A DNA stretch of 64,000 nt from Gammaproteobacteria bacterium. GTDB taxonomy: Bacteria; Pseudomonadota; Gammaproteobacteria; Steroidobacterales; GCA-2729495. The stretch spans positions 1 through 64,000 of the forward strand of contig JAAERX010000166.1 in assembly GCA_024229935.1 (NCBI GenBank), read 5' to 3'. This document shows positions 1-48,170 of the stretch, piece by piece (positions within the stretch are counted from its first letter, which is position 1; every line of letters starts with the position of its first letter). The notes under the pieces were generated by a model. That model worked only from the letters and a program-made list of their open reading frames with translations. It searched no databases and was not told the origin of the DNA. The position numbers were made by a program, and so were the translations under genes.

Positions 1-2556
1 AAAGTCATTAATTCCATCTCTGTCTGTATTTTTATGAAGCGGGTCTGTTCCGTAGGTATTAACCTCGAGGCCATCTTTTAACCAATCGTCATCACTATCA
101 TCTTTGTTGGGATCGGTTCCCAACAAAGCTTCCTGTGCATCAGTAAGACCATCCCCGTCAGTGTCCAGGTTTCCTGAATTATCATCAGCCCCATTGAGCG
201 GGTCTGTTCCGTTGATTAGTTCATCACCGTCATTTATACCGCCACCATCACTGTCACTGTTATTGGCATTAGTCCCCAGTAATGTTTCCAGTACATCGGC
301 CAGCCCGTCACTATCTGTATCCAGAGTTGCATCATCTGCAGGATCTGCAGGATTGAAAGTAGCCTGACCTGAGTTGGGGGACAGTACTGTTTCTATATAG
401 TCAGGAATACCACCGCCATCACTGTCTAGCATATCGGTATAAAGATTAGGGTTCGTGCCGTCAATAACTTCTACGGCATCAGGGACTCCATTACTATCGG
501 TATCTTTATAATCTAATGGGTCTGCTGGATTTGTTCCATCAGTTGCTTCTTCAGTATTGTCAACGAGATCACCATCATCATCAACAATGCCATTTGCTGA
601 GATGATCAGCTGAATGGAGTCTCCCTGGGTAATCTTGTACATACCGTTGGCATCAACATCTGTGTATTCATCAATATCACCATTTGGCCATTCAACTGAA
701 ATATCGGCAAGTGTGTTACTGGCCAGACCTACATGAATACGCTTATGGTTTTGTGACCAACGATGGTATTTGCCATTCTGTTCACGGTATTGTGTGATAC
801 CGCCTGCAGTGATCAGGATTTTTGACCCTATCCCATCCCGGTTTGAGGTTGTGCCTTCCAGATCAATCTCTAGCCAGTTATTACTATTACCAAGGTTATG
901 AAACAGTTGCTTGGGCCCGCCGTATTCAACCGGTCGCATGTTATTGCCATTGGTGACAAAAATATCTAGAAACCCATCAATATCATAGTCAGCAATAATT
1001 ACGCTTTCACTGGTACCTGCACCATCGCCATAAGCAGCACCTATAAGGCCAGCGGCACCACCAGCATTTGCCAGGGCGGTAAACGTACCGTCACCCTGAT
1101 TTTCATAAAGTATATTTGCTATATTTTCTGGCCCACCTGTACAGGCCAGAAAAATATCCTGATCCATATCATTATCAAGGTCACCGGCAACCGCACTTAC
1201 GCAAAGAATTTTGTCATTGAGTCCTCGAGCAGTGGTTTCATCAGAGAAACCACTAGGATTATTTATCAATAGTTTTGGGGCGCTTGGTTTGTCAGCATTG
1301 GTGGCACCCTCAAAAACAACATCAGTAATAGGCTGGTCTGAATCAACTGCTACAAAAGCATACCTATATTCCTCACCATTTTGCCGAATCTGCCAGACAC
1401 CTTCATTGGTGTCATAGCCTATATTTATGCCCAAGGAGTTAGTTTTTATTCCCCAGTTTGCAGAATCATTTGGGTCAAGGCTGAATTCAAGGTCAGATGG
1501 GCTGTAGCCTCCTGCACCAATATCTATATATTTTGGATCTCCATTGTCTGGGTCACCAGCACGCAGATCAGCCATTACCGTAAGAATTCCGGCTGTCCTA
1601 AAATAGGTGCTCTTTACATTTCCACTTGCAGTAATTAATTGAGTTTCTATTCTGTAGCTATCAACCTGCACAGCACCTGATGGGCGTGATGAGGCAATAA
1701 CCTCAAATATATCCGGACGAAGATCACCATTAAAATCTGCTGTTATTGCATCATTGACCCGGTTTGTTTGCGGGAAATCTGATGTCACATCGGATACTAC
1801 TCCGGAGGCAAAACCATAAATATTCTCTGGGTAAACCCCATTACGTGGGGCACATATTAGTTCCAGGCCGATACCTGCATCAATATTAGCTATATGTGCA
1901 AAGGAGGCGTCATCATTGCAATCCACACTTGTATACCATGTGCGACTGTAACCAAAGGTGCCATTATTCTGACGTGGGTAAAATCGGGGATTGCCTAATG
2001 CTGCTGCCATTACATCCAGAAGGCCATCACCTGTGTAGTCAAGAAATAGTGACATACGTCCACCATCATGGCCGAATCGATCGACTTCCCATTCAGCTGA
2101 TCGGTCAGTTAGCAGGCCGCCGTCGTTAATAAGTAATATGTCATCATCACTACTTATTGTTATATACAGATCATCATCACCATCATTATCTATATCGCCC
2201 CAAATGGCACCATGCGTGTCTACATCAGAGCGTCCACCGGTCCAGCCTGGTGTTTCTGACAGGTCTACCTCATTAGAAACATCTGTGAAAGTGCCATCAA
2301 GGTTATTTCTAAAGAGCGTTGAGCGAGTTCGGTGGTTGGTTGAAAATACATCAGGATAGTAGTCACCATTAATATCACCCCATGCTGCGCCCCATGTTTC
2401 GGAGCCTGTCCCTGAAAAGCCAGCATCTTGACTGACATCCTCGAATGTTATCTGCGCAATTGTGCTGTTGGCTGCAAAGACCAAAAGAATGCCTGGCAGT
2501 GCATTTTTCAGACTAAAGGTAAATGAGGGTATTTTCAGGGTTTTACTGAGCATCAT
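1..2556 (-). CDS. Secreted FG-GAP/ASPIC protein with thrombospondin-3-type calcium repeats (3' end outside window)
   Basis: An open frame runs on the minus strand from the ATG at 2556 to base 1 without a stop, so the C-terminus is missing (852 codons visible). Residues 1-37 form a signal peptide ending near STIAQ. FG-GAP/VCBS-type repeats follow, each with a calcium-loop pattern: WGDINGDYYPDVF near 60, WGDIDNDGDDDLYI near 115, DFNGDLRPDIF near 280, DLDNDMDQDIF near 460 and DYDIDGFLDIFV near 523. Residues about 540-640 match the ASPIC/UnbV domain, including WPNGDIDEYTDV. From about 655 onward there are thrombospondin type 3-like repeats (DTDSDGL..E..LGT.P) that run off the edge. Seen: the domain order. 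Known: such proteins are secreted or surface adhesive beta-propellers. Inferred: a cell-surface protein related to the neighbouring sulfatase. A second ATG at 2553 is an equivalent start. Confidence 0.88.
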   Translation of the reverse strand, partial: MMLSKTLKIPSFTFSLKNALPGILLVFAANSTIAQITFEDVSQDAGFSGTGSETWGAAWGDINGDYYPDVFSTNHRTRSTLFRNNLDGTFTDVSNEVDLSETPGWTGGRSDVDTHGAIWGDIDNDGDDDLYITISSDDDILLINDGGLLTDRSAEWEVDRFGHDGGRMSLFLDYTGDGLLDVMAAALGNPRFYPRQNNGTFGYSRTWYTSVDCNDDASFAHIANIDAGIGLELICAPRNGVYPENIYGFASGVVSDVTSDFPQTNRVNDAITADFNGDLRPDIFEVIASSRPSGAVQVDSYRIETQLITASGNVKSTYFRTAGILTVMADLRAGDPDNGDPKYIDIGAGGYSPSDLEFSLDPNDSANWGIKTNSLGINIGYDTNEGVWQIRQNGEEYRYAFVAVDSDQPITDVVFEGATNADKPSAPKLLINNPSGFSDETTARGLNDKILCVSAVAGDLDNDMDQDIFLACTGGPENIANILYENQGDGTFTALANAGGAAGLIGAAYGDGAGTSESVIIADYDIDGFLDIFVTNGNNMRPVEYGGPKQLFHNLGNSNNWLEIDLEGTTSNRDGIGSKILITAGGITQYREQNGKYHRWSQNHKRIHVGLASNTLADISVEWPNGDIDEYTDVDANGMYKITQGDSIQLIISANGIVDDDGDLVDNTEEATDGTNPADPLDYKDTDSNGVPDAVEVIDGTNPNLYTDMLDSDGGGIPDYIETVLSPNSGQATFNPADPADDATLDTDSDGLADVLETLLGTNANNSDSDGGGINDGDELINGTDPLNGADDNSGNLDTDGDGLTDAQEALLGTDPNKDDSDDDWLKDGLEVNTYGTDPLHKNTDRDGINDF

Positions 2557-2750
2557 TGGTCCACCAATGTATGACTTATTATTTTACTTGCGCTTCTTGC
2601 GTTGGGTAGTTTTAAAAATTGTTATTTTTCGGTGCCAGAAAGCAATACCCAACATGGTTCATTCTAATTCGTCAGGCACATGGATAACAGCAGTTTATAA
2701 ATAAAATATGATGCAATGCAACCAAGAAATGCATGGTTTTGGGCAAGCCT

Positions 2751-5700
2751 TTAACATGGATCAAGTGTGTATGGGTCAAATGGCCCCATAATAGGGATAC
2801 GGGCTGGTCCCACCCATGCTAACGCATTACTTGGGGTATTAATGCTAATGCAGATATCTGCGCCATTGGGATAGGCAAAATCAAATCCATCGTACCAGGG
2901 GGCTATTATTTTTAACGTATAGAAAATTGCAGAAGGGTCGCTGCTGATATCAAACAAATCCCCTGGTTCCAAATTGACTGGGACCGTGTTGGTAATAGGT
3001 TGGCTGCCAGACACTGAACCTGAGTACGCTGTGTAGCCGTTACCAGCGACAGCACGTATAGACCAATTTCCTGATGTGCAGTCTTGCCATACAAATACAC
3101 CATGATCTATTGCAGGATTGTAGTTGGGGGTTCCACAGATCAATGTATCATTATCAAGAATGGTGGCGAGCCCGGTAGAGTCGGCAAAGCTTGCATTGGT
3201 AGGATTACTCAGGACAAGTTTAAAGTTTTCATTATCCTCAGGCTCACTATCATCAATAATTAATACAGTTACTGGTTGACTAATTTCCCCAGGATTAAAT
3301 AATAATGTTCCTGTAGTTGTCAGGTAATCAGTATTTGTAACTGCAGTTCCGTCCAGAGTAGAGAAATCAACAGTTATTGCATCATCACTGGTAGGAGTCA
3401 GCGTTACGCTAAATGAAGTGCCGCCAGTATTTTCCTGAATGCTAATATCATTAATAGATAATTTTGGTAAAGTTGTAACTGGCCCACAAGGATGCAGTGT
3501 GTTTGGGTTAAACGATGCGCCTGCAGGGATGCGCGCTGAGCCTACCAATACAGAAGTGTCTGATGGTGTGTCTACATTGAAACAAATATTTGCACTATTT
3601 AGAAAGCTAAAACTAAAGCCATCTTCGTAGGGTGGGCTTATCCGCAAGTCATAAATGATAGTACTTGGGTCGGTTGAATTATCAAAAATATCACTTGACT
3701 CATGGCTGTATGGAACAACGTTATTAAAGTTCTGGTCAGTAATTACTGTACCCCGGTAACGGGTATAACCACCACCTGCAGTCAGGCGAACATGCCAGAT
3801 ATTGGTCGTGCAATTTTTCCACAGGAATATGGTGCCTTCAGAGCCGGGGTCATATACAGGTGCATCACATACAGACATCTCATTATCAATAACAGTTCCT
3901 GTAGCATTTGGATCGCTTAACTCGGCATTAACCGGATTACTTAGTGTTAGAAGAAAAATTTCATTTCCTTCTTGATCAGTGTCATCAATAATTGCAACAG
4001 GAATTTGTTTGCTGGTTTCACCTGCACTAAAAAAAAGTACTCCGCTTGTAGCTTGATAATCAGATCCGGCAGTGGCTGATCCATCAGATGTCATATAATT
4101 TACCGAGACTTCATAGCTGCTTGGTGGCGAGAGAGTGACAGTAAAATTGGTGCTTCCTGTAGCTTCATCGACTGAATTATCAGCTATAAACAGATTAGGT
4201 GGTGAAGAGTTGCTTGTTGGCACTGTACGGGTTGACTGATTTACCGCATAGTCATAACTGTTCAGCATTGCAGTAATTCGTGCGGCATGTTGTGAGTTAT
4301 TTATAAGATTATTTTGCTGTGCTAAATCATTAGCAAGGTTGTAGAGTTCAATTGGGTTGTCATCTGGATCCATTACCAGTTCCCAGTCGTCAACACGTAT
4401 GCCGCGATAACTATTGTGCTCTCCCCAGTGAGCGGCTTGTATTATGAGTTCATTCCGAACTGGGTTATTTTCCGGTTGCTGCCCAAGGAGGATGGGCATT
4501 ATATTAGCGCTATCCAGTGCCTGGTCTTCAGGAGTGTTCTGATTAGTCAGGTCATACATGGCAGCTACCCAATCCTGAGCACTGATCATTTGCTGGCTGA
4601 CGGACCCGGGTGCAATCAGAGAGCCTGCGGGAGTTCCGTCACCCCACTTTGCGATGAAGGGCACCCCGTGTCCGCCGGCATAAATTAGTGTTTTTCGACC
4701 CCTTAACCCATTGACACTGTCATGGCCAGCAACTTTGTGTGTCCATGAAGCATTACCGCCGTTATCACTCGTAAATATAATCAGTGTATTTTCAGCTATT
4801 CCTCTGCTTTCCAATGCATCAATAATCTGGCCGACCTGAAGATCCAGCTCATAGATCATGTCGGCTTTTGCATCAATACCGCTAACTCCCTGAACAGGTT
4901 GTCCAGCCAATGTAGCGGGCGGAGTATTAGGCTCATGGATTGCCTGTGTTGAGTAGTACAACAAAAATGGTTTGCTGGTGCCGTACTGATTGTTGTGTGA
5001 GTCAATAAATTCGACAGCTTTTTGTGTAAGTGTTGGCCCGACTAGGCTGCTATCCCAGTTGGCATCTCCGAAGCCTGCTCTTTGTATAACCCCACCACCC
5101 ATAGGGCCTATATCCAATGCGACAATGCCGGGTTCATTTTGATTTATTGGAATGTAGGTTTCATTTTCAAAATATGCATAGAGGCTGGCCTGAATGCCAT
5201 TAGTGGTGACCCATGAATAATCAAAGCCATGATCTGTGGGGCCGTTTCTAAACTGTCTGGTAAAATCTATCTGAGTTGCATCACTGCCACGATAGATTGA
5301 ATTAGAATTCTTGGCGTAGAAGTCTCCGCCCAGATGCATCTTCCCGATAAATGCTGTGGCATAGTTTGCGGCTCGCAGAATGTCAGCAACAGTTTGCTGC
5401 CCGGATAAAAAATTTGATTTGTGGGTGAACCGCCAAACTCCCCAGCGATCTCTGCCCCGGTACGGATAATTACCTGTTAATAATGAATAACGGGATGGTG
5501 CGCAAACGGATGATGGTGTATGTGCATCCGTAAATATCATGCCCTCTTGAGCAAGTCTGTCAATATTGGGTGTTGGAATTGTAGATGTTGTAGTTTTGTA
5601 GGGGCCTACATCACCGTAACCTAAATCGTCAGCAAGTATGAAAACAACATTTGGTGGCCCATCCCCTGCAGCGGCCTCAACCCTTGTCAGCGGAACAAGC

Positions 5701-5756
5701 AGTAATCCCATTTGCAGGATTAAAAGAAAATATAGACTGCAAGCTCTAAACGACAT
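2751..5756 (-). CDS. Secreted type I sulfatase with two Calx-beta domains and two copies of an unknown C-terminal module
   Basis: Formylglycine-dependent sulfatase (arylsulfatase family) that would cleave sulfate esters, probably from a sulfated polysaccharide, outside the cytoplasm. The metal site ADDLGYGD, the signature CAPSRYSLLTG (its Cys is the residue matured to formylglycine) and GKMHLGG are all present. The sulfatase domain covers roughly 500 residues after the signal peptide. Then come Calx-beta 1, module A (from CDAPVYDPG to LHPC), Calx-beta 2, and module B (from CGTPNYNP to the last residue LDPC). The two modules resemble each other and those of the sulfatase at 37814-41131. The ORF extends to an ATG at 5822, which also has a possible ribosome site (AGGG). 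I prefer 5756: AGGA lies just upstream at good spacing and the protein then begins with an ordinary signal peptide (MSFRACSLYFLL). Substrate is unknown. Confidence 0.93.
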   Translation of the reverse strand: MSFRACSLYFLLILQMGLLLVPLTRVEAAAGDGPPNVVFILADDLGYGDVGPYKTTTSTIPTPNIDRLAQEGMIFTDAHTPSSVCAPSRYSLLTGNYPYRGRDRWGVWRFTHKSNFLSGQQTVADILRAANYATAFIGKMHLGGDFYAKNSNSIYRGSDATQIDFTRQFRNGPTDHGFDYSWVTTNGIQASLYAYFENETYIPINQNEPGIVALDIGPMGGGVIQRAGFGDANWDSSLVGPTLTQKAVEFIDSHNNQYGTSKPFLLYYSTQAIHEPNTPPATLAGQPVQGVSGIDAKADMIYELDLQVGQIIDALESRGIAENTLIIFTSDNGGNASWTHKVAGHDSVNGLRGRKTLIYAGGHGVPFIAKWGDGTPAGSLIAPGSVSQQMISAQDWVAAMYDLTNQNTPEDQALDSANIMPILLGQQPENNPVRNELIIQAAHWGEHNSYRGIRVDDWELVMDPDDNPIELYNLANDLAQQNNLINNSQHAARITAMLNSYDYAVNQSTRTVPTSNSSPPNLFIADNSVDEATGSTNFTVTLSPPSSYEVSVNYMTSDGSATAGSDYQATSGVLFFSAGETSKQIPVAIIDDTDQEGNEIFLLTLSNPVNAELSDPNATGTVIDNEMSVCDAPVYDPGSEGTIFLWKNCTTNIWHVRLTAGGGYTRYRGTVITDQNFNNVVPYSHESSDIFDNSTDPSTIIYDLRISPPYEDGFSFSFLNSANICFNVDTPSDTSVLVGSARIPAGASFNPNTLHPCGPVTTLPKLSINDISIQENTGGTSFSVTLTPTSDDAITVDFSTLDGTAVTNTDYLTTTGTLLFNPGEISQPVTVLIIDDSEPEDNENFKLVLSNPTNASFADSTGLATILDNDTLICGTPNYNPAIDHGVFVWQDCTSGNWSIRAVAGNGYTAYSGSVSGSQPITNTVPVNLEPGDLFDISSDPSAIFYTLKIIAPWYDGFDFAYPNGADICISINTPSNALAWVGPARIPIMGPFDPYTLDPC

Positions 5757-5833
5757 TGTGTTCCTCATGAAGTTTTTGTATCTCTTTAAGCGAGCACCTA
5801 ATTCTTTAATGAGGGACATCATTAAAAAGCCCT

Positions 5834-5857
5834 AATGTATGTGTACTTAAATACATT
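5834..5857. promoter_or_regulatory. Inverted repeat upstream of the sulfatase gene
   Basis: AATGTAT (5834-5840) and ATACATT (5851-5857) are perfect 7-bp inverted arms with a 10-bp spacer, just upstream of the longer sulfatase start. Position and symmetry would suit an operator, but the sequence is AT-rich and the protein that would bind is unknown. The remainder of 5858-6086 shows no gene. Confidence 0.25.
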
Positions 5858-6086
5858 TAATGCTCCCGTACGCTGTGTGGCCGAATTTATGCGTTGATTG
5901 GGTAAACTACTGAAGTCTAAGTATGGAGTATAAAATTGATATGTGCATTGCCCGTCTTTTTATTCTTTAAAAGGGCTAATGCAAATTATATTGCTATTTG
6001 GGCTTGATTGAAAATGGGGTTATGTAATGCAATAAAAGTAAGTGTTTACATAACTGAATGCTTGCAGTTAATGCTTTTAAGGTATT

Positions 6087-7214
6087 TTAGGGGTTAAAAA
6101 CAGGGTTGCTGGATATTACAGGCAGGGCATCACTCCATGTATAGGAATCACTTGGGTCAGCCCATGCTTTGCGGTTCCAGAATAAATAGCTAACATGCAG
6201 TTCATCTCTGGCAAACTGAAAAAGTTCATCCATAGTCCAGTAAGTCGTGCTATAGCTTGCATCCAGGTGCTCGTGATTGTAGCTATTGTATTGCATTGAA
6301 TTGAACAATGTCATCTTTCCATTGAACTCGTCATAGAACGGATATGTGTGAGTCTTAAGGGAGTGGCTATCCGGTAAAACATCCGGCCCACCCATAGCAA
6401 CACCTGCTGGAGCTACAGCATTTGCAATGTCACTGATGTAAGACATATTCCCTGGAAGGAAGTTCATGTACCAAAATGCTCTGGAATTAGGCACACTTTC
6501 AGCGGCATTCAATAAGGTTTCAATCAACGCATCCCTGTAAATTGCCGGGGTATAGCCGTAAGCATTAAGTGTGCTTTGTGTAAAGCCGTGTGCGCTTTCT
6601 TGTATAGCGACTCCCTCGAAGGCAGGGTGGTTGTCAAACCTATTTCCAAGCTCATCAATTAGTTTGCTAAATCGCTCTATGACATAAGGCTTCCAGCGTA
6701 TAGCGGTATAGCCACCCGCCTTGTTTGGGGCAGTATAGTTTGCCTGTAAGTACAGTGGCGTGGGAATTTCACCGTTAAAAGTTTTATCTTCAATGAAAAC
6801 TATTAATTGCTTATTTTGGGCTGCAAGCAGATCCAGGTCGGCCTCTACAGCAGAAAAATCATATTCGTTATAGTTTGGCTCTAACCATTTCCAGTGGTAG
6901 CGTATTTGTAACCCCGCCACCCCTGGTCGAAGGGCATTAAGCATGTTGTCATCTGTATCCCATGGATTCATTGAAATGTAATGCCCTGGGTTATATTTTT
7001 TTTCTGCTATGGGTGTTGCTACAGCAACATTTTCCGAAGGTGAGGCTGGGATTGATTCGCTCGTTTCAGCGTTTGATTCGCTTCTTTCAGCGTTTGATTC
7101 GCTTGTTTTGGTATTTGCACCTCCACCGGTGCCACAACTAACTACTAACAACACCAAGCATAGCGCGGCTGAGTTACGTATCAGACGTTTTTGTTTAATA
7201 AAATCTAGCATCAC
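6087..7214 (-). CDS. Lipoprotein resembling TIM-barrel glycoside hydrolases
   Basis: 375-residue lipoprotein. The signal peptide ends in a lipobox (VVSC, Cys27), followed by a Ser/Glu/Thr-rich linker (residues about 30-68) containing tandem SESNAE/SESNAET units. The globular part from about residue 72 starts with an N-terminal strand/helix layout like that of clan GH-A barrels: GLQIRYHWKWLEPNYNEYDF (retaining-hydrolase style W..LEP..G.YDF), LIVFIEDKTF, then EGVAIQESAHGF where the Glu of IQES could be the acid/base, and YLFWNRKAW near the C-terminus. I cannot name a family with certainty. Its position between a sulfatase and an EPS-type outer-membrane protein supports a polysaccharide substrate. 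Function is inferred; the lipoprotein nature is directly seen. Confidence 0.72.
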   Translation of the reverse strand: MMLDFIKQKRLIRNSAALCLVLLVVSCGTGGGANTKTSESNAERSESNAETSESIPASPSENVAVATPIAEKKYNPGHYISMNPWDTDDNMLNALRPGVAGLQIRYHWKWLEPNYNEYDFSAVEADLDLLAAQNKQLIVFIEDKTFNGEIPTPLYLQANYTAPNKAGGYTAIRWKPYVIERFSKLIDELGNRFDNHPAFEGVAIQESAHGFTQSTLNAYGYTPAIYRDALIETLLNAAESVPNSRAFWYMNFLPGNMSYISDIANAVAPAGVAMGGPDVLPDSHSLKTHTYPFYDEFNGKMTLFNSMQYNSYNHEHLDASYSTTYWTMDELFQFARDELHVSYLFWNRKAWADPSDSYTWSDALPVISSNPVFNP

Positions 7215-9501: not shown

Positions 9502-10413
9502 TTACGGGAGCCAATGAGCAAGATCACGGTCTGTTAGTTTTGCCAGATTATTAATGTCATCACGAAATTCCTCTGTAAGCATCTGGCGTAATTCACTTGA
9601 AAGCGGTTCACGTTTGTATTCAATTTTGTTCCATTCATGCAGCCAGTAACGAAGATTAGTTTTTTGTATTACCGGCAATTTTTCGAACTTGTTAAATGCT
9701 CTGGAAACCCTTGATGTTGAATCATGTGCCAGATTGGCGCCAAGCCAGCGAAACCTGTGGCGTTTATTAGTGTTCAGGCTCCGCGCGTCTCTTCGAGGCA
9801 TATAGGGGACGCCTAGAAATTTCAGTGTTTCTTTATATACCTTGTCGGCATCTGCATGCAGGTCTTCCATAAAGATAATTTTGACCTGCTCACGCGGGAC
9901 TTTGGTATAGAGTTTTTGTAAGTATTTCCCAAGCGCGCCAATTTCACGATATTGCAAAGCAAAAGGGACCTTACATCTAGGGACAATACCTTCACCCTTT
10001 TGACGGCTTTCCTGTAAATACCAGGCAGTTTTAAAGTCTTCAATCTGTTCCATGAATGTGTAATAGAGCTGTGAATGCCATGAGTAAACCAGATCAATGG
10101 GGTTGCGAAGCATTACGATGAAGCGTGCATTTGGGTCAAACTTGAGAATATTATCTACCGCTACTTCTGAATAAAGATAAATAACAGACTTTTCGCCCAC
10201 AGCTTTATGTTCATCAGTTACGGCATCAAATAATCTCAGATAACTTTCAGGTGTGTAGTTTGCTATAGACGGAAAATCAGTACAGAAATACTGAGGTTCA
10301 AAAGCCAGTGGTACATATATCTTTGGGTGCCAGCGCAGGGTATTGATGAGTGAACTCGTGCCACATTTAGGCGCGCCTATAATAAAGAAATTAGGTTTTT
10401 GGGCAGTTCTCAT
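9502..10413 (-). CDS. PAPS-dependent sulfotransferase
   Basis: 303-residue soluble protein of the carbohydrate sulfotransferase type. The 5'-phosphosulfate loop is at the N-terminus (FFIIGAPKCGTSSLINTL, residues about 9-26), with the conserved Lys of PKCGT. The 3'-phosphate motif follows as RFIVMLRNPIDLVYSWH around residues 97-113. It would transfer sulfate from PAPS to a hydroxyl of a glycan or small molecule in the cytoplasm. Neighbouring genes on the other side encode a barrel protein and a sulfatase, so the organism may both make and process sulfated polymers. The acceptor cannot be deduced. Confidence 0.9.
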   Translation of the reverse strand: MRTAQKPNFFIIGAPKCGTSSLINTLRWHPKIYVPLAFEPQYFCTDFPSIANYTPESYLRLFDAVTDEHKAVGEKSVIYLYSEVAVDNILKFDPNARFIVMLRNPIDLVYSWHSQLYYTFMEQIEDFKTAWYLQESRQKGEGIVPRCKVPFALQYREIGALGKYLQKLYTKVPREQVKIIFMEDLHADADKVYKETLKFLGVPYMPRRDARSLNTNKRHRFRWLGANLAHDSTSRVSRAFNKFEKLPVIQKTNLRYWLHEWNKIEYKREPLSSELRQMLTEEFRDDINNLAKLTDRDLAHWLP

Positions 10414-10636
10414 TGCGCGTCATGCTAGCATTCTGACAGGTTGTTTACATAGCCAATTTCTGTGGTATTGCTTATGTTGGTTCTGCCAATAGATTAAGGG
10501 GCGCTCATAACACCTTATGTATAAATTGTTATGAATCAGACTCTTGTTATAGAAGCCACTTACTGTTGAATACTAATTTACTGGTATGTCTTATAAGAAC
10601 AGGCAGGCGTGTTTACCATGTGCTTATGAAAAACGT

Positions 10637-11932
10637 TTAGTTTATTGCCTTAACCTCAGATAGCCGTTGCTGCATAGCCCAGATGAAGACAGCACCGTTT
10701 GCAGCAGCAACAGCAATGAAGGGTGCGCCGGGCGCAATGAGATCAAATAATTGCCCACCACCCCATGAGATGGCAAGGATACCAACGGCACCGAAGAAGC
10801 TTTGCACACCAAATACAGAGCCTCGAATACTAGAGGGGCATTCCTGAGCAAGTAAAACAGTAATAGCCAGTCCTGCACTGGACTGCCCGATACCTGCAAC
10901 TATAAGTGCAGGAGTAACTGACCAAACGGAGAGTACATCCGTACTTATTCCGAGCCATCCATAACCAATTGCAGCAAATATAAAGGCAATCAGCGTGAGT
11001 GATAGACGATCTATTCTGTCAGCAATAATGCCGAATATGGGGGCCCATATAAGTGCCGCTACAGAGTAGATAGCTACATATAAACCTGCTTTACCCTGTG
11101 CTTCAGCAGGCGTTAGCCCTGCATTACCCCCGGCCTGTACAACCCACAGAATGAAAAACAGTGTAATAATTGCCATATCAGCACGTGCTGCAAATGCAGC
11201 AAGGTAGGCTATGCTGATGCGTTTATTGCGTCCGGCCTTAAGACCTTCTTTAAGCAGTGTGAGTACAGGAACTTTTTCTGCTGCTTCTTCTGGTCTGCCT
11301 GGTTTAAGGCCAAACATAACCAGAGACCCAATAAATGCAATGGCGGCAACTGTAAGATAAGCATAATGCCCGGCCCATATTTCATCTGCACCCTGTCCCT
11401 GGTAAATGCTGGGTAGCTGACTTAAGCCGCCAAAAAAAGCAGCAGCACCCAGGCCATTTAAGATAAAGCTTATGCCGGTAAATTTGCCCCGAGACTGATC
11501 CTGTGGGTAATCAGCCATGATGGCGGCCAGATTAGTTGTAGTGGCGGCCACAGCTAAGGCAAATATAATGCGGAAGGCGAATAATTGTGGCAGGGACGTG
11601 GAGAAAGAATAAATACTGTATGCCACCGTCATTAACAGAAAGCCTGTTATATAGATGGGGCGTCGTCCGAACTGGTCTGAGAGGGCGCCCCACCAGCCTA
11701 TACACAATATAACAACTATTTCTTGCAGGAATTGTAGGTTACCGATAATACGACCGTGTTCTTCTTCTGGAATGCTAAGGTTAACCTTAAGGATGTAAGG
11801 TGTTAATGACATCAGATAGGTAAACATGCCGATGCTGATACCTGCAGCAAAAAGAAAACACAGGACGTGTCGGGTTGTTACACCCGGTTGCAATTGAACC
11901 GGGCCGAAGGTGGCTGCGATTAGTGCATTCAT
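10637..11932 (-). CDS. MFS transporter, second gene of the metal-response operon
   Basis: 431-residue major facilitator with about 12 hydrophobic segments. The inter-helix 2/3 signature is present in the form GWWGALSDQFGRRPIYITGF (residues about 79-98), and a related loop (GIIADRIDRLSL) sits in the second half, as expected for the two-fold pseudo-repeat. It starts 18 bp downstream of the P1B ATPase stop on the same strand, so both are probably cotranscribed from the MerR-type promoter at 14453-14484. That context suggests export of a metal or a metal-stress compound, but the sequence alone gives no substrate. Confidence 0.85.
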   Translation of the reverse strand: MNALIAATFGPVQLQPGVTTRHVLCFLFAAGISIGMFTYLMSLTPYILKVNLSIPEEEHGRIIGNLQFLQEIVVILCIGWWGALSDQFGRRPIYITGFLLMTVAYSIYSFSTSLPQLFAFRIIFALAVAATTTNLAAIMADYPQDQSRGKFTGISFILNGLGAAAFFGGLSQLPSIYQGQGADEIWAGHYAYLTVAAIAFIGSLVMFGLKPGRPEEAAEKVPVLTLLKEGLKAGRNKRISIAYLAAFAARADMAIITLFFILWVVQAGGNAGLTPAEAQGKAGLYVAIYSVAALIWAPIFGIIADRIDRLSLTLIAFIFAAIGYGWLGISTDVLSVWSVTPALIVAGIGQSSAGLAITVLLAQECPSSIRGSVFGVQSFFGAVGILAISWGGGQLFDLIAPGAPFIAVAAANGAVFIWAMQQRLSEVKAIN

Positions 11933-42373: not shown

Positions 42374-42418
42374 GTCTTTTTACCTGGAGTCGGGTTGCCG
42401 ACAGATTTGAATCTAATG

Positions 42419-43426
42419 ATGGAATTTTTTCTGGAATTTTGTTTGTTTTTTCTTAAGTCACTCACAATTGTGGTGGCTATTATTGCTGTTGTTATGGCAA
42501 TTATATCGGCATCACGCGGTGCTGATTCCGGTCATGGCCTTACTATTGAAAAACTGAATGAGAAGTATCAGTCAATGGCTGACAAGTTAAGTCAGGCTGT
42601 GATGTCAAAAACAGCATGGAATGCCTATGACAAGACGCAAAAGAAAGAGCGTAAGGCAGAGGCAAAACAATCTGATGAAGAGCGTGGCAAGCGTATATTT
42701 GTAATTAATTTTGTGGGTGATATGCGTGCCAGTCATGTGGATTCATTACGTGAAGAAGTTAGTGCTGTGATGTTGATTGCTACACAAGCAGATGAAGTTG
42801 TTGTAACGCTTGAAAATTCGGGCGGTACAGTGCATGAACATGGTCTGGGTGCCTCACAGCTGCAGCGGATAAAGGATCATGGCATTCCACTGGTAGTTAT
42901 AGTTGATAAGGTTGCTGCAAGTGGTGGTTACCTAATGGCAAGCATCGCAGATAAAATTATTGCGGCGCCCTTTGCCATTATTGGGTCTATTGGTGTGCTT
43001 GCTCAATTACCAAATTTCAATCGTTTTCTTGAGCAGCGGGGAATTGATTTTGAGCAGGTGACTGCAGGTAAATACAAACGTACTTTGACCATGTTTGGTA
43101 AGAATACTGAGGCAGATCGTGAAAAGACGCGTGAAGATCTTGAAGAGGTGCACCGATTATTTAAAGGTGCTGTTACAGAGCACAGACCGGCACTGGAGAT
43201 TGAGCGTGTTGCAACAGGGGAATACTGGTATGGCTCACGTGCACTTGAACTTGGGTTGATTGATGACCTTGGCTCCAGTGATGATTATCTTATGCGTTTG
43301 GCTACAGAGGATCATGCGCAAATTTATGCGGTAACGTATAAAGGCCGTGTAAGTTTCATGCAAAAAATACAGGGAGCTTTTGGTTCATTAGCAGCTTCTC
43401 TGGGTTTTGGTAGTGGCTTGCGGTAA
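42419..43426 (+). CDS. sohB: SohB-type inner-membrane serine peptidase (family S49)
   Basis: About 335 residues. N-terminal membrane anchor (LKSLTIVVAIIAVVMAIISA), a charged linker, then the S49 domain: VVTLENSGGTVHEHGLGASQ, the nucleophile in KVAASGGYLMASIADKI, and IIGSIGVLAQLPNFNRFL. The catalytic Lys is expected in GKYKRTLTMFG. Domain order matches SohB rather than SppA (single domain). The frame can start at TTG 42395, but MEFFLEFCLFFLKSL from ATG 42419 mirrors E. coli SohB. It lies directly after lipA. Confidence 0.92.
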   Translation: MEFFLEFCLFFLKSLTIVVAIIAVVMAIISASRGADSGHGLTIEKLNEKYQSMADKLSQAVMSKTAWNAYDKTQKKERKAEAKQSDEERGKRIFVINFVGDMRASHVDSLREEVSAVMLIATQADEVVVTLENSGGTVHEHGLGASQLQRIKDHGIPLVVIVDKVAASGGYLMASIADKIIAAPFAIIGSIGVLAQLPNFNRFLEQRGIDFEQVTAGKYKRTLTMFGKNTEADREKTREDLEEVHRLFKGAVTEHRPALEIERVATGEYWYGSRALELGLIDDLGSSDDYLMRLATEDHAQIYAVTYKGRVSFMQKIQGAFGSLAASLGFGSGLR

Positions 43427-43496: not shown

Positions 43497-44270
43497 ATGA
43501 ATATCATTAGTCGAGTTATCTGCTTTTTTCTTTCTGCTGTAATCGCAGCAGTACTAAGCGGGTGCGTGAGTCAGTCACAGATTGAAATAAGTTCCGATGA
43601 TGAATTTCAGCGAATGCGCACCTCAATGCCCTTGTCTAATAATCTTACGGACAGGGCATATGTCAGATGCGTAGCGCTCAGTATTATTGAACAGCTGGAT
43701 GAACCATACGCCAGTTATGACTGGGAAATAGAGCTTTTTGATAGTCAGGATGTGAATGCCTTCGCAATGGCGGGTGGTAAAATTGGTGTTTTTTCAGGAC
43801 TGTTAAATGTGGCAACAAATCAGGATCAATTGGCAGCAGTTCTGGGGCATGAAGTTGCACATGTGACTGAGGACCACACACTAGAGCGTGCCAACCGGGA
43901 TGCTGTGACCCGGAATGTAGCAATCTTTGGTTCAGAAGTACTGGATGCATCAACAGGGCTGGAAACAACAGATCTCATGGTTTTTGGTGCACAGGTGGGC
44001 TTGATGTTGCCTTACCAGCGGTCAGCTGAAAGTGAGGCTGATACAGTAGGCCTTATTTATATGGCTGCTGCAGGCTTTGACCCACTTGCCAGTATTACCT
44101 TATGGACTAATATGGCGAAGGTATCAGGTGGTGCTGGGCCACCGCCATGGTTGTCGACACACCCATCTGGGGATGCGCGTATTGCTGAACTGGCGGGGGA
44201 AATGATTGATATATTACCTATATATAACAAAGCCTTAGAGGAAGGCCGCCGGCCTAATTGCAGACATTAA
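43497..44270 (+). CDS. M48-family zinc metallopeptidase lipoprotein
   Basis: 257 residues with a lipoprotein signal (AAVLSGC, Cys23). Zinc site HEVAH in VLGHEVAHVTEDHTLERA, with the third ligand Glu in RSAESEADTVGLIYM. VNAFAMAGGKIGVFSGLL is the family lead-in. The size and anchoring fit the periplasmic LoiP/YcaL-like group that acts in outer-membrane protein quality control. Followed after a short gap by an L,D-transpeptidase, so this part of the region is devoted to the envelope. Confidence 0.9.
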   Translation: MNIISRVICFFLSAVIAAVLSGCVSQSQIEISSDDEFQRMRTSMPLSNNLTDRAYVRCVALSIIEQLDEPYASYDWEIELFDSQDVNAFAMAGGKIGVFSGLLNVATNQDQLAAVLGHEVAHVTEDHTLERANRDAVTRNVAIFGSEVLDASTGLETTDLMVFGAQVGLMLPYQRSAESEADTVGLIYMAAAGFDPLASITLWTNMAKVSGGAGPPPWLSTHPSGDARIAELAGEMIDILPIYNKALEEGRRPNCRH

Positions 44271-44326: not shown

Positions 44327-45463
44327 ATGGTCGTTTTTTTCCGACAGCTACTGCTGAGTATTTTTACAGGCGCTATTCTTGCTGCCTGTACCGTTCGGCC
44401 GGCTCAAGTATCACCTGAACCTGCGGCGGCGCTTAGACAAGAGCCTGCTGCTAATAAGCAGTTGGTTACTTATGTGACAGGTAATCCGCCACTAGTTACT
44501 GACCGGTTCTTACTGACATCACCAGATCAGGAAATTGTGGGTGCATTACAGGTAATTCATACACGCTATGAAGACACCTTTGTTGATATTGCTCGCACCT
44601 ATAACCTTGGCTTTGATGAATTAATTGAGGCGAATCCTAATGTAGATCCCTGGTTGCCAGGAGAAGGTACACGAGTTGTTTTGCCAACACAGTTTATTCT
44701 GCCAAATGCTCCTCATGAGGGCATCGTTATTAATCTCGCTAACAAGCGCTTGTTCTGGTATCTGCCAGCAGATAAAGATGGCGTGCATGCAGTTATGACT
44801 TTTCCTATTGGTATAGGCCTGCAGGGTACGGCAACGCCCACGGGTATTACGACCATAACGCAGAAAATTCGTAATCCAACATGGTTTGTGCCTGCTGCGA
44901 TTCGTGCAGAATATGCAGCTGAAGGCACACCATTGCCAAAGCAGGTGCTGCCTGGTCCAGATAACCCACTTGGTGGTTACGCATTATTACTAGGGATGCC
45001 TTCTTACCTGATTCACGGCACCAATCGTCCTGCTGGGGTAGGCATGCGAGTAAGTCATGGCTGTGTAAGGCTGTTTCCAGAAAATATTGAACGTCTTTAT
45101 TCTGAGGTTCCTGTTGGGGAGCCGGTAACTATTGTTGATCAGCCCTGGTTGGTGGGGTGGCGCAATAACCGGCTTTATCTGGAGGCTCATCCGCCACTTG
45201 AAGATGATTCCCGTGATTGGCCGGGCATTCTCCCTGGTCTGTTAGCGGGCGCAATGACTTCAGCGCCGTTAAAAATTGCTGATCACCCTGATTTAGATCG
45301 GGTTAATGCAATTATTAATGCAGGTCGTGGTATACCATTACCGGTGTTGTTTGATGAACCTACTACCCAAAGCTACCTGCAGACAGCCCTGATGGTAAAC
45401 AATATTATTGTGTTACCGCCTTTGGTGCGTGAACAGGTTGCTGCAGAAGGTATGGACAGATAA
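44327..45463 (+). CDS. LysM-containing L,D-transpeptidase (YkuD domain)
   Basis: 378 residues. Signal segment with lipobox-like LAAC. A LysM domain (about residues 77-125, TFVDIARTYNLGFDELIEANP) is followed by the YkuD catalytic domain: GIVINLANKRLFWYLP, LIHGTNRPAGVGMRVSHGCVRL with the catalytic Cys of SHGCVR, and IVDQPWLVGW. The layout matches the ErfK/YbiS/YcfS group, which crosslinks peptidoglycan or attaches proteins to it. The C-terminal 100 residues (after about 275) are an extension without recognised domain. Confidence 0.92.
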   Translation: MVVFFRQLLLSIFTGAILAACTVRPAQVSPEPAAALRQEPAANKQLVTYVTGNPPLVTDRFLLTSPDQEIVGALQVIHTRYEDTFVDIARTYNLGFDELIEANPNVDPWLPGEGTRVVLPTQFILPNAPHEGIVINLANKRLFWYLPADKDGVHAVMTFPIGIGLQGTATPTGITTITQKIRNPTWFVPAAIRAEYAAEGTPLPKQVLPGPDNPLGGYALLLGMPSYLIHGTNRPAGVGMRVSHGCVRLFPENIERLYSEVPVGEPVTIVDQPWLVGWRNNRLYLEAHPPLEDDSRDWPGILPGLLAGAMTSAPLKIADHPDLDRVNAIINAGRGIPLPVLFDEPTTQSYLQTALMVNNIIVLPPLVREQVAAEGMDR

Positions 45464-45514: not shown

Positions 45515-47104
45515 ATGGTTTTGTTGTCAATGCCATCAGATATAAATAATAGCTGCACATATGTTGTTGAAGGCTCTGCTCAGGGTCAGCCTATTCCTGT
45601 TGATGGTGATTCTGTTACTGCATTTGTAGGGCCTGCTCCGCGTGGCCCGGTTGATCATGCAGTAAAAATTAATAGTCCTGATGATTTTCTGCAAAACTTT
45701 GGCGCGCCTGAATACCATTGTCGGCTGGAATTTTCTATCCGCCAGTTTTTTGCCAATGGTGGTAGGAATGCCGTTGTTGTCCGTGTTTCTGGTACAAGTG
45801 TATGTCACCGTATACGTTTACGGGCAGGTAGTGAGGAGCTTGTGCTTGAAGCACGTAATCCTGGCCCATTTGAGTATCTGCGTGCATCAGTTGATTACGA
45901 CGGTATCAATGCTGAGGATGAAAGCTATTTCAATTTGGTTGTGCAGCGCTTGCGCCGCCCAGGGTCAGCATGGATTGATGCGCAGGAATATTATCGGGCT
46001 GTATCAATAGACCCGGGGAGTCGGGACTACCTTGGTTACATACTTAGCCAGTCAGACCTTATAAAAGTTATTGGTCAGCCACCTGTTTCCCGGCCAGAGC
46101 CCACTTATAAAGACTGTACGGTACGTGAACCAGACTATGTTGATATATTGACAGATCCTGTTTACAGCCCCCCTCCATCAGATTATGACCTGATAGGCTC
46201 GGCTGCTGATGGAACAGGGTTAAATGCCCTGGAACATATCCATGATATTGGTCAGGTTGTACTGCTGTCGGGTGCTGAAGGCACTCCAATTGGCCCGGTT
46301 GCGTTACTTGCTGCAGATCGTTTTTGTCGTAGTCATCAGTCCTTGCTCATCATAGACCCGCCAGCATGCTGGGTTACTGTTGAGGATGTCATGGCAGACC
46401 AGGCGCGTTCCGGATTCACCAGTCCAAATGCCATTACCTGGTTTCCTGGTGTCTACATCCGGAATTCACAGGGTGAAAAAGTTTTGACTAGTGCAGCGGG
46501 TTCCATAGCGGCTGCATTAACTGCCAGTGACCGTTGTGACGAAGTATTGCAACTGTATGCTGAGGGTCCTGTTTTGCTACGAGCTGGGGTCAAGCTGACA
46601 GCTGTAGTCGATGATGATGCAATACGTCGTCTTGCACGAGCGGGGATTAATACACTTGTTCAGCGTAGTGCGTTACACCTGCAGTTGCAGGGTAAAGTGA
46701 CTCAGGCTCGGTATGGGAGTATTTCGGCAGATTGGAATGCGCTTGAAATGCGGCGCCAGGTTTTATTTATTCTGCGGCGTATTCGTAGTGGTGCTTATTG
46801 GACGCATTTAAAAGAGTCCAATCAGGCGGTCTGGCAGGAGCTTACGGGCCAGATTAGTGAGTTTTTAAGTGAGCTACATGCACGTTCCATACTTGTAGGC
46901 GAATACCCACAGCAGTCTTTTTATATTAAATGTGACGCTGATACCAATGCAGAGATTGGTGAGCGTACAGGAGAAATAGCCTTTATTGTTGGCTTTGCTA
47001 TTCGACAGGAGGGTGAATTTCTTGTATTTCATTTCCATTGCTCCCAAGAGATGTGCCGCATTGCTGAATTGGGGTGGCAATCAAGTCTGGAACGTACCGG
47101 TTAG
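45515..47104 (+). CDS. Solitary contractile-tail-sheath-like protein
   Basis: 529 residues. The N-terminal domain (DGDSVTAFVGPAPRGPVDHA, then INSPDDFLQNFG, and FSIRQFFANGGRNAVVVRV, residues about 30-92) has the pattern of phage, R-pyocin and eCIS sheath proteins. The C-terminal domain also fits: EMRRQVLFILRRIRSGAYWTH, WQELTGQISEFLSELHARSI, FYIKCDADTNAE and EGEFLVFHFHC. In between, GVYIRNSQGEKVLTSAAGSIAAALTASD and LARAGINTLVQ are recognisable, but the usual grG.xxWGART stretch after the GIN motif is missing. No tube, baseplate, spike, ClpV or phage gene is found anywhere in the window. Neighbours are an L,D-transpeptidase and a lipoprotein methyltransferase. Start ATG 45515 or 45530; no clear ribosome site. 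Confidence 0.8.
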   Translation: MVLLSMPSDINNSCTYVVEGSAQGQPIPVDGDSVTAFVGPAPRGPVDHAVKINSPDDFLQNFGAPEYHCRLEFSIRQFFANGGRNAVVVRVSGTSVCHRIRLRAGSEELVLEARNPGPFEYLRASVDYDGINAEDESYFNLVVQRLRRPGSAWIDAQEYYRAVSIDPGSRDYLGYILSQSDLIKVIGQPPVSRPEPTYKDCTVREPDYVDILTDPVYSPPPSDYDLIGSAADGTGLNALEHIHDIGQVVLLSGAEGTPIGPVALLAADRFCRSHQSLLIIDPPACWVTVEDVMADQARSGFTSPNAITWFPGVYIRNSQGEKVLTSAAGSIAAALTASDRCDEVLQLYAEGPVLLRAGVKLTAVVDDDAIRRLARAGINTLVQRSALHLQLQGKVTQARYGSISADWNALEMRRQVLFILRRIRSGAYWTHLKESNQAVWQELTGQISEFLSELHARSILVGEYPQQSFYIKCDADTNAEIGERTGEIAFIVGFAIRQEGEFLVFHFHCSQEMCRIAELGWQSSLERTG

Positions 47105-47318
47105 GCGGGTTGTAAGCAGTTTAGCCTGATTTTAGGCCGATATATGGCCTGACTGCGTAGAAGTCAGAGTATCTATCAGCTGCCTCCTTCTCATGGTGAT
47201 CAACAGCACTAAAGTATTTTGGTCAAATAGCTGTACATGCTTGTTGATATCATCAGCTTTGTTCTAAGCTGGCTCTATCCAGTTTAATCAGATGCCTGTA
47301 CCGGTCAGGGGGATATCC

Positions 47319-48170
47319 ATGAAGAAAATTTTATGTGCAGCTATATTTTTTACAATGATCATTTTGTTGCAAGGCTGTGAGAAAAATAGTGTAACGCCAT
47401 CTTCAATTGTGGTGGATAAAAAAGCGGATGATAAACTGGCTGCTATATTGGCTGGTGAGCATCGTTCAGATGAGCATAAGGCCCGTGATAAATTTCGCCA
47501 TCCGGCAGAAACGCTCTCATTTTTTAGTGTGACACCCGATGCGAGCGTTGTTGAGATCTGGCCTGGTGGCGGTTGGTATACCGAAATACTGGCACCGTAT
47601 TTACGTGATGAAGGTCGATATATAGCTGCCGGTTTTGATCCTGAGTCTGATATTGAATTTATTCGTATTGCAGCGGGTAAGTATCAGTCTAAGCTTGATG
47701 CCAACCCAGAGCTTTACGATAAGGTTGAAACTGTGGTGCTAATGCCGCCGAATCAGCTGGACTTTGTACCGCCTGATTCTGTGGATGTGGTGCTGACATT
47801 CCGGAGTGTTCACAACTGGATGCCACGCAATGCTCAGGGGGTAATGTTTCAGGCGATATATACAGCCCTTAAGCCTGGTGGTGTTTTGGGTGTGGTTGAG
47901 CATCGTGGTAACCCTGCTATTCCGCAGGATCCAAAAGCAGCCACAGGTTACGTAAATCAGGATTATGTGATTGAGCTCGCAGAGTCAGCAGGATTTGTCT
48001 TAAATGGCAGCTCTGAGATTAATGCTAACTTGGCTGATACCAAGGATCACCCGGAGGGTGTCTGGACCTTACCGCCAACTCTGCGAATGAAAGAACAAGG
48101 TAAGGAAACATGGTTGAGCATAGGTGAAAGCGACCGGCTTACATTACGGTTTATTAAGCCCGTTAATTGA
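47319..48170 (+). CDS. Class I methyltransferase-like lipoprotein
   Basis: About 283 residues. ATG 47319 has GGGGG 6 nt upstream and begins directly with a lipoprotein signal (MKKILCAAIFFTMIILLQGC); the longer start at 47292 lacks this support. The mature protein has a Rossmann methyltransferase fold: VVEIWPGGGWYTEILAPYL (SAM-loop like, GGG), YIAAGFDPES, VDVVLTFRSVHNW and ALKPGGVLGVVEHRG. It matches the predicted methyltransferases with a signal peptide known in gammaproteobacteria. A SAM enzyme outside the cytoplasm is odd, because SAM is not normally found there, so the activity may differ. Confidence 0.82.
   Translation: MKKILCAAIFFTMIILLQGCEKNSVTPSSIVVDKKADDKLAAILAGEHRSDEHKARDKFRHPAETLSFFSVTPDASVVEIWPGGGWYTEILAPYLRDEGRYIAAGFDPESDIEFIRIAAGKYQSKLDANPELYDKVETVVLMPPNQLDFVPPDSVDVVLTFRSVHNWMPRNAQGVMFQAIYTALKPGGVLGVVEHRGNPAIPQDPKAATGYVNQDYVIELAESAGFVLNGSSEINANLADTKDHPEGVWTLPPTLRMKEQGKETWLSIGESDRLTLRFIKPVN

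What the first reader, a model, noticed from the sequence alone, without database searches (positions are those of the whole stretch)
45515..47104. Orphan contractile-tail-sheath-like protein with no partner genes
The N- and C-terminal halves read as a phage/R-pyocin/eCIS sheath, but nothing else of such a particle (tube, baseplate, spike, ClpV, adaptor) is present within 64 kb. The neighbours are an L,D-transpeptidase and a lipoprotein methyltransferase. The usual WGART stretch is replaced, which may mean it cannot form a normal contractile helix. This could be a domesticated sheath with an envelope role, part of a split injection system with genes elsewhere, or a degraded remnant; the intact 529-codon frame argues against decay. 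The sheath likeness is pattern-based.
Basis: partly seen in the sequence, partly recalled or inferred. Interest (0 to 1): 0.75.

Follow-up and report, generated by a model that had tools for sequence, protein, structure and literature searches.

The report
Contractile sheath protein without its machine
A protein that normally forms the contracting outer sleeve of phage tails and bacterial injection machines has been kept, alone and without the rest of the machine, as a common gene across a large group of bacteria, and it appears to have been remodelled for some other job.

Summary
The gene at 45515-47104 is a genuine contractile-sheath homologue (PDB sequence match E 2.5e-24; model pLDDT 86.7, Z 32 to the Streptomyces sheath). 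It is not a local oddity: the same lone gene is in 38 of 40 genomes of its family (one copy each) and a match is found in 243 of 296 of its order. In 20 carriers, six on one contig, tube, gp25 and spike models hit over their cut-offs in one only. Sheath loci outside the order mostly carry a tube gene (22 of 25). Lone copies form one group in the tree and are under purifying selection (dN/dS 0.09-0.23). Their conservation is inverted: the outer insert beats the C-terminal assembly domain in 891 of 914 pairs, against 1 of 141 ordinary pairs. WGART, AEFV and the PGVY arm occur in 0, 0 and 1 of 48, against 26, 27 and 28 of 28. Best reading: an exapted sheath that no longer injects, perhaps a cytoplasmic scaffold or adaptor linked to an L,D-transpeptidase; that job is inferred. 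Remnant and split-machine readings are unlikely. Caveat: the same assembly holds a fragment of a different contractile phage tail, with its own unrelated sheath, which three partner models had missed.

The parts
45515..47104 (+). Lone sheath-fold protein, 529 aa (perhaps 524 aa from ATG 45530)
45554..45613 (+). Residues 14-33: remains of the N-terminal arm; canonical PG[VI]Y-type pattern in 1 of 48 lone copies, 28 of 28 ordinary sheaths
45614..45799 (+). Residues 34-95: N-terminal core, well conserved (F37, G44, P45, F62, F79, G82, V89, R90 invariant)
45800..46180 (+). Residues 96-222: insert (outer) domain; 96-165 is among the best conserved parts of the lone family and poorly conserved in ordinary sheaths; E120, R145 and Q157 are conserved here and uncommon there
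46181..46534 (+). Residues 223-340: subtilisin-like core, conserved
46535..47041 (+). Residues 341-509: C-terminal assembly domain, constraint relaxed; WGART replaced (columns of residues 392-396)
47042..47101 (+). Residues 510-529: C-terminal tail, longer than in most of the ordinary sheaths compared
44327..45463 (+). L,D-transpeptidase (YkuD), same strand, 51 bases upstream; commonly upstream in the family
43497..44270 (+). Peptidase M48 protein, recurrent neighbour
42395..43426 (+). Peptidase S49 (SohB-like), recurrent neighbour
47292..48170 (+). Methyltransferase-like protein (weak matches) with a lipoprotein-like N-terminus, recurrent neighbour downstream

Best explanation
This is an exapted contractile-sheath protein. 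SHOWN: it has the sheath fold; it is kept as a mostly single-copy chromosomal gene through most of a gammaproteobacterial order; its genomes, with one exception among 20, give no hit for the tube, gp25 and spike families that go with ordinary sheaths; and selection now guards the N-terminal core, outer insert and subtilisin-like core rather than the arms and C-terminal domain that build and contract a sheath helix. INFERRED: it stays in the cytoplasm (no signal peptide was seen by eye) and no longer contracts. It works as a structural or adaptor protein through its conserved outer face, alone or as a small ring or protofilament. It serves cell-envelope upkeep together with the L,D-transpeptidase and envelope proteases beside which it often lies. 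The exaptation part is held at about 0.9, the adaptor/envelope mechanism at about 0.3.
For: Fold: PDB sequence hits; Foldseek 9ezm E 4.3e-25; Z 32.2, 326 residues at 2.7 A to 9gts_2A; a second model, of a member 30% identical to the window protein, gives Z 34.9, 324 residues at 2.4 A. Distribution: 38 of 40 family genomes, 28 of 28 good ones; a match in 243 of 296 of the order, 193 of 232 good ones, 55 of 66 genera. No partners: PF04965, PF06841 and PF04717 hit over the cut-off only in G193 among 20 carriers, six of them single-contig; PF06841 recognises three tubes of ordinary relatives at E 1e-43 to 1e-47. Outside the order, 22 of 25 sheath loci carry a tube gene within about 1.5 kb; in 90 overlapping stretches around lone copies or their former neighbours there was none. 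Lone copies on one side of a branch, SH-aLRT 100. dN/dS 0.093-0.229 in 12 measurable pairs of 14. Inverted conservation (partly 68). Motif loss. L,D-transpeptidase upstream on the same strand in 29 of 35 family genomes, in 3 of 3 f2 loci and in four f9 genomes.
Against: Nothing here measures function or location. The arms are altered, not all deleted: 37 of 48 keep a loose N-arm pattern, and G14, E19 and I27 are mostly kept (40, 43 and 45 of 48), so some form of assembly may persist. Regional dN is mixed among close lone pairs: the insert is slower than the C-terminal domain in 5 of 8 only. Linkage to the transpeptidase is absent in genus g3 and in the single loci examined of f3, f5, f8 and f10, and it is about 5-7.5 kb in two f6 loci, so it may be ancestral synteny only. 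53 of 296 order genomes have no match, and a few of the 243 are weak and may be ordinary sheaths (for example G045, best E 1e-17). The assembly holds a contractile phage tail fragment on contig C163, which the tube, gp25 and spike models had missed, so those negatives cover only the families searched; the Baseplate_J model in turn found nothing in G193, which has the other parts. G193 carries tube, gp25 and spike genes beside a lone copy.
Confidence: 0.62

Rival explanations
1. It still assembles into a sheath-like tubule or stacked rings, static or contractile, without a tube, using altered arms; the polymer itself is the functional structure.
For: Whole sheath fold kept; 37 of 48 keep a loose N-arm pattern and G14, E19 and I27 are largely kept; the C-terminal domain still changes far more slowly at non-synonymous than synonymous sites.
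Against: Arms and C-terminal domain, the parts that make the helical mesh, are the least constrained; WGART 0 of 48, AEFV 0 of 48; three of five members of the window's own genus have lost the N-arm pattern (by eye).
Confidence: 0.25
2. Decoy or antagonist: the lone sheath binds or poisons the assembly of incoming phage tails or rival injection machines.
For: Loss of parts needed for contraction would suit a dominant-negative subunit; a contractile phage tail fragment lies in the same assembly.
Against: Widespread, mostly single-copy, in a recurrent neighbourhood of ordinary chromosomal genes; no informative PADLOC match.
Confidence: 0.07
3. Part of a split contractile injection system whose other genes lie elsewhere in the genome.
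For: C163 of the same assembly carries a contractile phage tail module; G193 has tube, gp25 and spike genes.
Against: Six single-contig carriers have no hit for tube, gp25, spike or Baseplate_J (that model also misses G193); the C163 module has its own DUF3383 sheath without significant similarity to this one.
Confidence: 0.03
4. Decaying prophage or injection-system remnant.
For: Alone; weak Pfam scores.
Against: No internal stop in the matches that searches list (the list is capped); order-wide conservation; dN/dS 0.09-0.23.
Confidence: 0.01

Closest known systems
Streptomyces-type contractile injection system sheath (PDB 8bky, 8bl4, 9gts)
   Same: Fold and sequence similarity, Z 32, 24% identity over 326 residues
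   Different: Such sheath genes sit in a cluster with a tube (example: a Streptomyces plasmid), and the ordinary sheaths compared keep the arms, WGART and AEFV; this one does not
Proteobacterial and IMG/VR injection-system sheaths L060-L064, L074-L075, L082-L092
   Same: Nearest sequence relatives found, full length; 22-27% identity where the tools give it
   Different: Patchy; tube gene on the locus; conservation concentrated in arms and C-terminal domain
Sheaths with an outer domain (9ezm from H. borinquense, T4 gp18, phage P1, Listeria Lin1278)
   Same: These align over 400 or more residues, so the match extends into the insert domain
   Different: Described as parts of tails or contracted sheaths in their entries
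Encapsulins (capsid protein exapted as a compartment; name recalled, the HK97-capsid passage seen in PMC8987985)
   Same: Single structural protein of a phage machine kept by cells without the machine
   Different: Different protein; the job of the lone sheath is unknown

Membership tests
Contractile sheath protein (homology and fold) | Significant sequence similarity to solved sheaths | tested here: met
   E 2.5e-24, E 1e-20
Contractile sheath protein (homology and fold) | Sheath fold | tested here: met
Contractile sheath protein (homology and fold) | Canonical N-arm, WGART and C-terminal AEF[VI] motifs (patterns chosen here from the ordinary sheaths) | tested here: not met
   1, 0 and 0 of 48 against 28, 26 and 27 of 28
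Contractile sheath protein (homology and fold) | Constraint concentrated in the N+C-terminal core that contacts the tube (PMC9230969, passages) | tested here: not met
   arms and C-terminal part relaxed; the N-terminal core (34-95) is still well conserved
Contractile sheath protein (homology and fold) | Polymerises and contracts | not testable with these tools
   -
Contractile injection system / tailocin / phage tail | Tube gene of the gp19 kind in the genome | tested here: not met
   0 in own genome at E<=1; 1 of 20 carriers, G193. Built-in control genomes: 2 of 14 at E<=1, none over the cut-off, 0 of 14 at E<=0.01; own positive control 3 of 3 tubes
Contractile injection system / tailocin / phage tail | gp25 baseplate and gpV/VgrG-type spike | tested here: not met
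   0 in own genome; 1 of 20 over the cut-off, G193; G046 a 34-position gp25 match under the cut-off
Contractile injection system / tailocin / phage tail | Baseplate_J gene anywhere in the genome | tested here: inconclusive
   0 of 10 relatives, G193 included although it has other parts; in G000 one hit on contig C163, part of an unrelated phage tail with its own sheath
Anti-phage defence system | Match to a PADLOC model | tested here: inconclusive
   only MTase_II at E 0.013

The most novel reading that the evidence does not exclude
An order of Gammaproteobacteria has turned the sheath of a contractile injection machine into a permanent, machine-free cellular component: a scaffold or polymer, possibly of the cell envelope. 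It would be the sheath counterpart of what encapsulins are to phage capsids.
Probability: 0.4. Interest if true: 0.9.

Novelty: new variant of a known kind. Interest (0 to 1): 0.72.

Why it matters
Phage-tail parts are known to be domesticated as whole machines (type VI secretion, tailocins, eCIS). A sheath kept alone, as a widespread gene of an order and with its selection pattern turned inside out, would be a new kind of reuse. It offers a defined gene, conserved residues (R123, D127, R145, Q157, E158, D225) and a gene neighbour with which to find the job by deletion and pull-down. I found no description of it in the library searched: 'Steroidobacter' + 'phage tail sheath' 0 papers, 'Woeseia' + 'tail sheath' 0 papers, six orphan/lone sheath phrases 4 papers, none on bacteria or phages, and broader combinations whose listed titles and abstracts describe no lone sheath (one search lists 15 of 83 and one search lists 8 of 9). 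The first two names rest on my recalled guess at the order. Most papers of subscription journals, and preprints, are not held.

Tried and rejected
Pfam and NCBIfam alone do not name the window protein: Gp18_domIII_N E 0.072 and an HslV match E 0.017, both treated as chance or too weak. Of 44 members scanned, 21 reach Phage_sheath_1C, 6 Phage_sheath_1 and 5 Gp18_domIII_N at E 0.01. Phage records gave 2 weak partial hits, so a recent prophage origin was dropped. The two genes often directly downstream in the family (cl17, cl12) were considered as obligate partners and rejected: both are absent from the window's genome, found in 63 and 58 of 119 order genomes, and lie 13-22 kb away in several f9 genomes (positions; stretches). 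A rhomboid protease and a gamma-glutamylcyclotransferase-like gene sit beside the sheath in some genomes only (names by eye). Promoter and terminator scans were uninformative. The viral structure library returned phage sheaths, as expected. The first neighbourhood table held spurious antisense frames in GC-rich genomes and was replaced. mis-set minus-strand ends; one search corrects it. One search printed reader warnings because alignment files were swept in; one search repeats it cleanly.

Rows dropped before counts. The 48 lone copies are 45 of 57 (12 left out: loci of genomes held twice, one identical pair, and both copies of G012) plus L079-L081; near-identical pairs remain among them. The 28 ordinary sheaths come from 28 of the 36 loci outside the lone group (left out: near-copies L061, L062, L065, L066, and L095, L098, L103, L104 as cut or odd frames; second copies in L064 and L097 too). 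Two of the 28, L097 and L106, showed no tube within their short flanks. The 25 loci counted for tubes are those given among 36 genomes outside the order that matched. In one search, 75 of 216 ordinary pairs had too few insert residues and were not counted. In one search, two of 14 pairs gave no ratio (identical, or dS saturated). The 90 stretches overlap and include some fetched for the neighbour genes only. The tree holds 26 of the 48 lone copies.

The order is not named by the tools. That it is the Steroidobacter/Woeseia lineage is recalled, from the contig lengths of G078 and G090. PMC7082342 passages only say that those two groups are sister lineages.

Full report
WHAT IS THERE. The frame at 45515-47104 (+) is intact and 529 aa long; relatives suggest that translation may start at Met6, 45530. 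It is a real sheath homologue. phmmer against PDB chains gives the Streptomyces contractile-injection-system sheath 8bky_A at E 2.5e-24, then 8bl4, 9ezm, Pvc2 and, weaker, Afp2. PHROG_23 'tail sheath' is at E 1e-20. Pfam sees little. AlphaFold2 on 44 aligned members gives pLDDT 86.7 and pTM 0.87. The 50 PDB matches that Foldseek lists are entries of sheaths, tails or injection systems (9ezm E 4.3e-25), and VIA-align gives Z 32.2 with 326 residues at 2.7 A to 9gts_2A. A distant member (L055, 30% identical to the window protein) gives the same answer, Z 34.9 with 324 residues at 2.4 A.

IT IS AN ORDER-WIDE GENE. One copy is found in 38 of 40 genomes of the family, 28 of 28 among those at least 90% complete and at most 5% contaminated. 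In a sample of the order a match at E<=0.001 is in 243 of 296 genomes, 193 of 232 good ones and 55 of 66 genera, mostly one per genome. 53 genomes have none, and a few of the 243 are weak and may be ordinary sheaths (G045, three matches, best E 1.1e-17). In 370 genomes sampled from the class, scored with the family profile, 41 match at E<=1e-20; five are members of the order, the window's own included, with 410-697 bits. Matches outside the order are scattered and score at most 359 bits there. In 397 genomes sampled from the phylum only two besides the window's own reach E 1e-60, with 386 and 271 bits. Both have WG[AS]RT, PAEFV and PGVY; one has tube hits and the other an AAA hit nearby.

NO MACHINE OF THE EXPECTED KIND. 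PF04984 and PF06841 find nothing in the window's genome. In 20 genomes that carry the gene, six on a single contig, PF04965 (gp25), PF06841 (tube) and PF04717 (spike) hit over their cut-offs only in G193; G046 has a short gp25 match below it. PF06841 rings over its cut-off in none of the tool's 14 control genomes, but it recognises three of three tubes beside ordinary relatives at E 1e-43 to 1e-47. Outside the order, 22 of 25 sheath loci show a tube gene within about 1.5 kb. In 90 partly overlapping stretches around lone copies or their former neighbours, none of the tube, DUF4255 or AAA queries hits at E 0.01.

A RESULT AGAINST A CLEAN ABSENCE. Baseplate_J hits contig C163 of the window's own assembly, and none of 10 relatives. 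It also finds nothing in G193, which has tube, gp25 and spike, so it is not a safe negative. The 6917-base contig (GC 0.441, window 0.44-0.47) is a contractile phage tail module: a DUF3383 sheath (Pfam E 2e-67, PHROG 'tail sheath' E 6e-42), an E217 gp32-like protein, tape measure, baseplate hub, sheath initiator (below Pfam's cut-off) and Baseplate_J. It has its own sheath, which shows no significant similarity to the window's protein. I read it as a phage or prophage fragment unconnected to this gene. It shows that the three partner models do not see every kind of phage tail, so the negatives hold for the gp19/gp25/gpV families that go with this gene's ordinary relatives.

HISTORY AND SELECTION. 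In a tree of 54 proteins the 26 lone copies lie on one side of a branch with SH-aLRT 100 (the root is not tested). dN/dS over the whole gene is 0.093 to 0.229 in the 12 of 14 pairs that could be measured. The gene is therefore maintained, not decaying.

INVERTED CONSERVATION. Lone copies (48) and a broad set of 14 ordinary sheaths have similar overall identity, 0.396 and 0.377, but distribute it differently: N-arm 18-33 0.33 against 0.51; N-terminal core 34-95 0.49 against 0.37; insert 96-165 0.48 against 0.23; core 223-340 0.45 against 0.29; 341-400 0.30 against 0.51; 401-472 0.35 against 0.52; 473-509 0.31 against 0.58. A closer set of 17 ordinary sheaths shows the same slope at higher overall identity (0.584; insert 0.38, C-terminal 0.84-0.85). 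Among pairs of 30-45% overall identity, the insert is better conserved than the C-terminal domain in 891 of 914 lone pairs and 1 of 141 ordinary pairs. Regional dN agrees only in part: the insert is slower than the C-terminal domain in 5 of 8 lone pairs, and faster in 5 of 6 ordinary pairs. WG[AS]RT is found in 0 of 48 against 26 of 28, AEF[VI] near the end in 0 of 48 against 27 of 28, and PG[VI]Y-type N-arms in 1 of 48 against 28 of 28. A paper on sheath evolution ascribes tube contact and tail assembly to the conserved N+C-terminal core and regards the other domains as additions (PMC9230969, abstract and passages). In the lone family the added domain is among the best kept parts and the C-terminal part of the core is relaxed. 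Still, 37 of 48 keep a loose N-arm pattern, so altered assembly is not excluded.

NEIGHBOURHOOD. The window order S49 - M48 - L,D-transpeptidase - sheath - methyltransferase recurs in the family with insertions of a rhomboid-like gene, a GGCT-like gene and the pair cl17-cl12. The transpeptidase lies upstream on the same strand within 3 kb in 29 of 35 family genomes; of the six misses, two (L018, L026) lie near contig ends. It is also upstream in 3 of 3 f2 loci and in four f9 genomes, about 5-7.5 kb away in two f6 loci, and not found beside the sheath in the single f3, f5, f8 and f10 loci examined. The link is suggestive, not universal.

HOW IT MOST LIKELY WORKS. Shown: sheath fold, stable inheritance, missing partners of the expected families, shifted constraint. 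Inferred: a non-injecting cytoplasmic structural or adaptor protein acting through the N-terminal core, insert and subtilisin-like core, perhaps for envelope upkeep beside the transpeptidase. No catalytic site is proposed. Invariant polar residues that could be tested are R90, R123, D127, R145, Q157, E158 and D225; E120, R145 and Q157 are uncommon at those columns in ordinary sheaths.

KNOWN OR NOT. As a fold it is a member of the sheath family. As a system it is not a contractile injection system on the features tested. I found no report of it in the library searched (listings and starts of abstracts seen). A review of exapted mobile elements treats phage tails as whole machines in the passages seen (PMC8987985).

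Noticed in passing
L036:9700-10383 and 10393-11055; downstream of the sheath in many of L002-L045: Two uncharacterised, well conserved genes (cl17 about 212 aa, cl12 about 219 aa; mean column identity 62% each) sit downstream of the sheath in most family loci, next to each other, and are found in 63 and 58 of 119 order genomes; no Pfam family over its cut-off. cl12 has a weak NHLP/Frankia_peptide-like stretch (E 0.056-0.1). Absent from the window's genome.
   Followed up: partly
L139 (contig C163 of the window's assembly) 1-6917: Fragment of a contractile phage tail module with DUF3383 sheath, E217-like parts and Baseplate_J.
   Followed up: yes
L060 1-7000, L062 1-6500: IMG/VR contigs with a contractile-system sheath and tube at one end and, on the other, genes that read like inovirus assembly genes (recalled, by eye); L064 has two sheath genes in tandem.
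   Followed up: no
G193 (L057, L059, L135): An order member with a lone sheath and, on other contigs, gp25, tube and spike genes; the only such case among 20.
   Followed up: no
L003, L004, L005 N-termini: Three of five members of the window's own genus have lost the recognisable N-arm strand pattern (by eye).
   Followed up: partly
L051 2961-7337, L131: In f9 the transpeptidase-sheath pair is preceded by genes that read like LemA and TPM-domain proteins (by eye).
   Followed up: no
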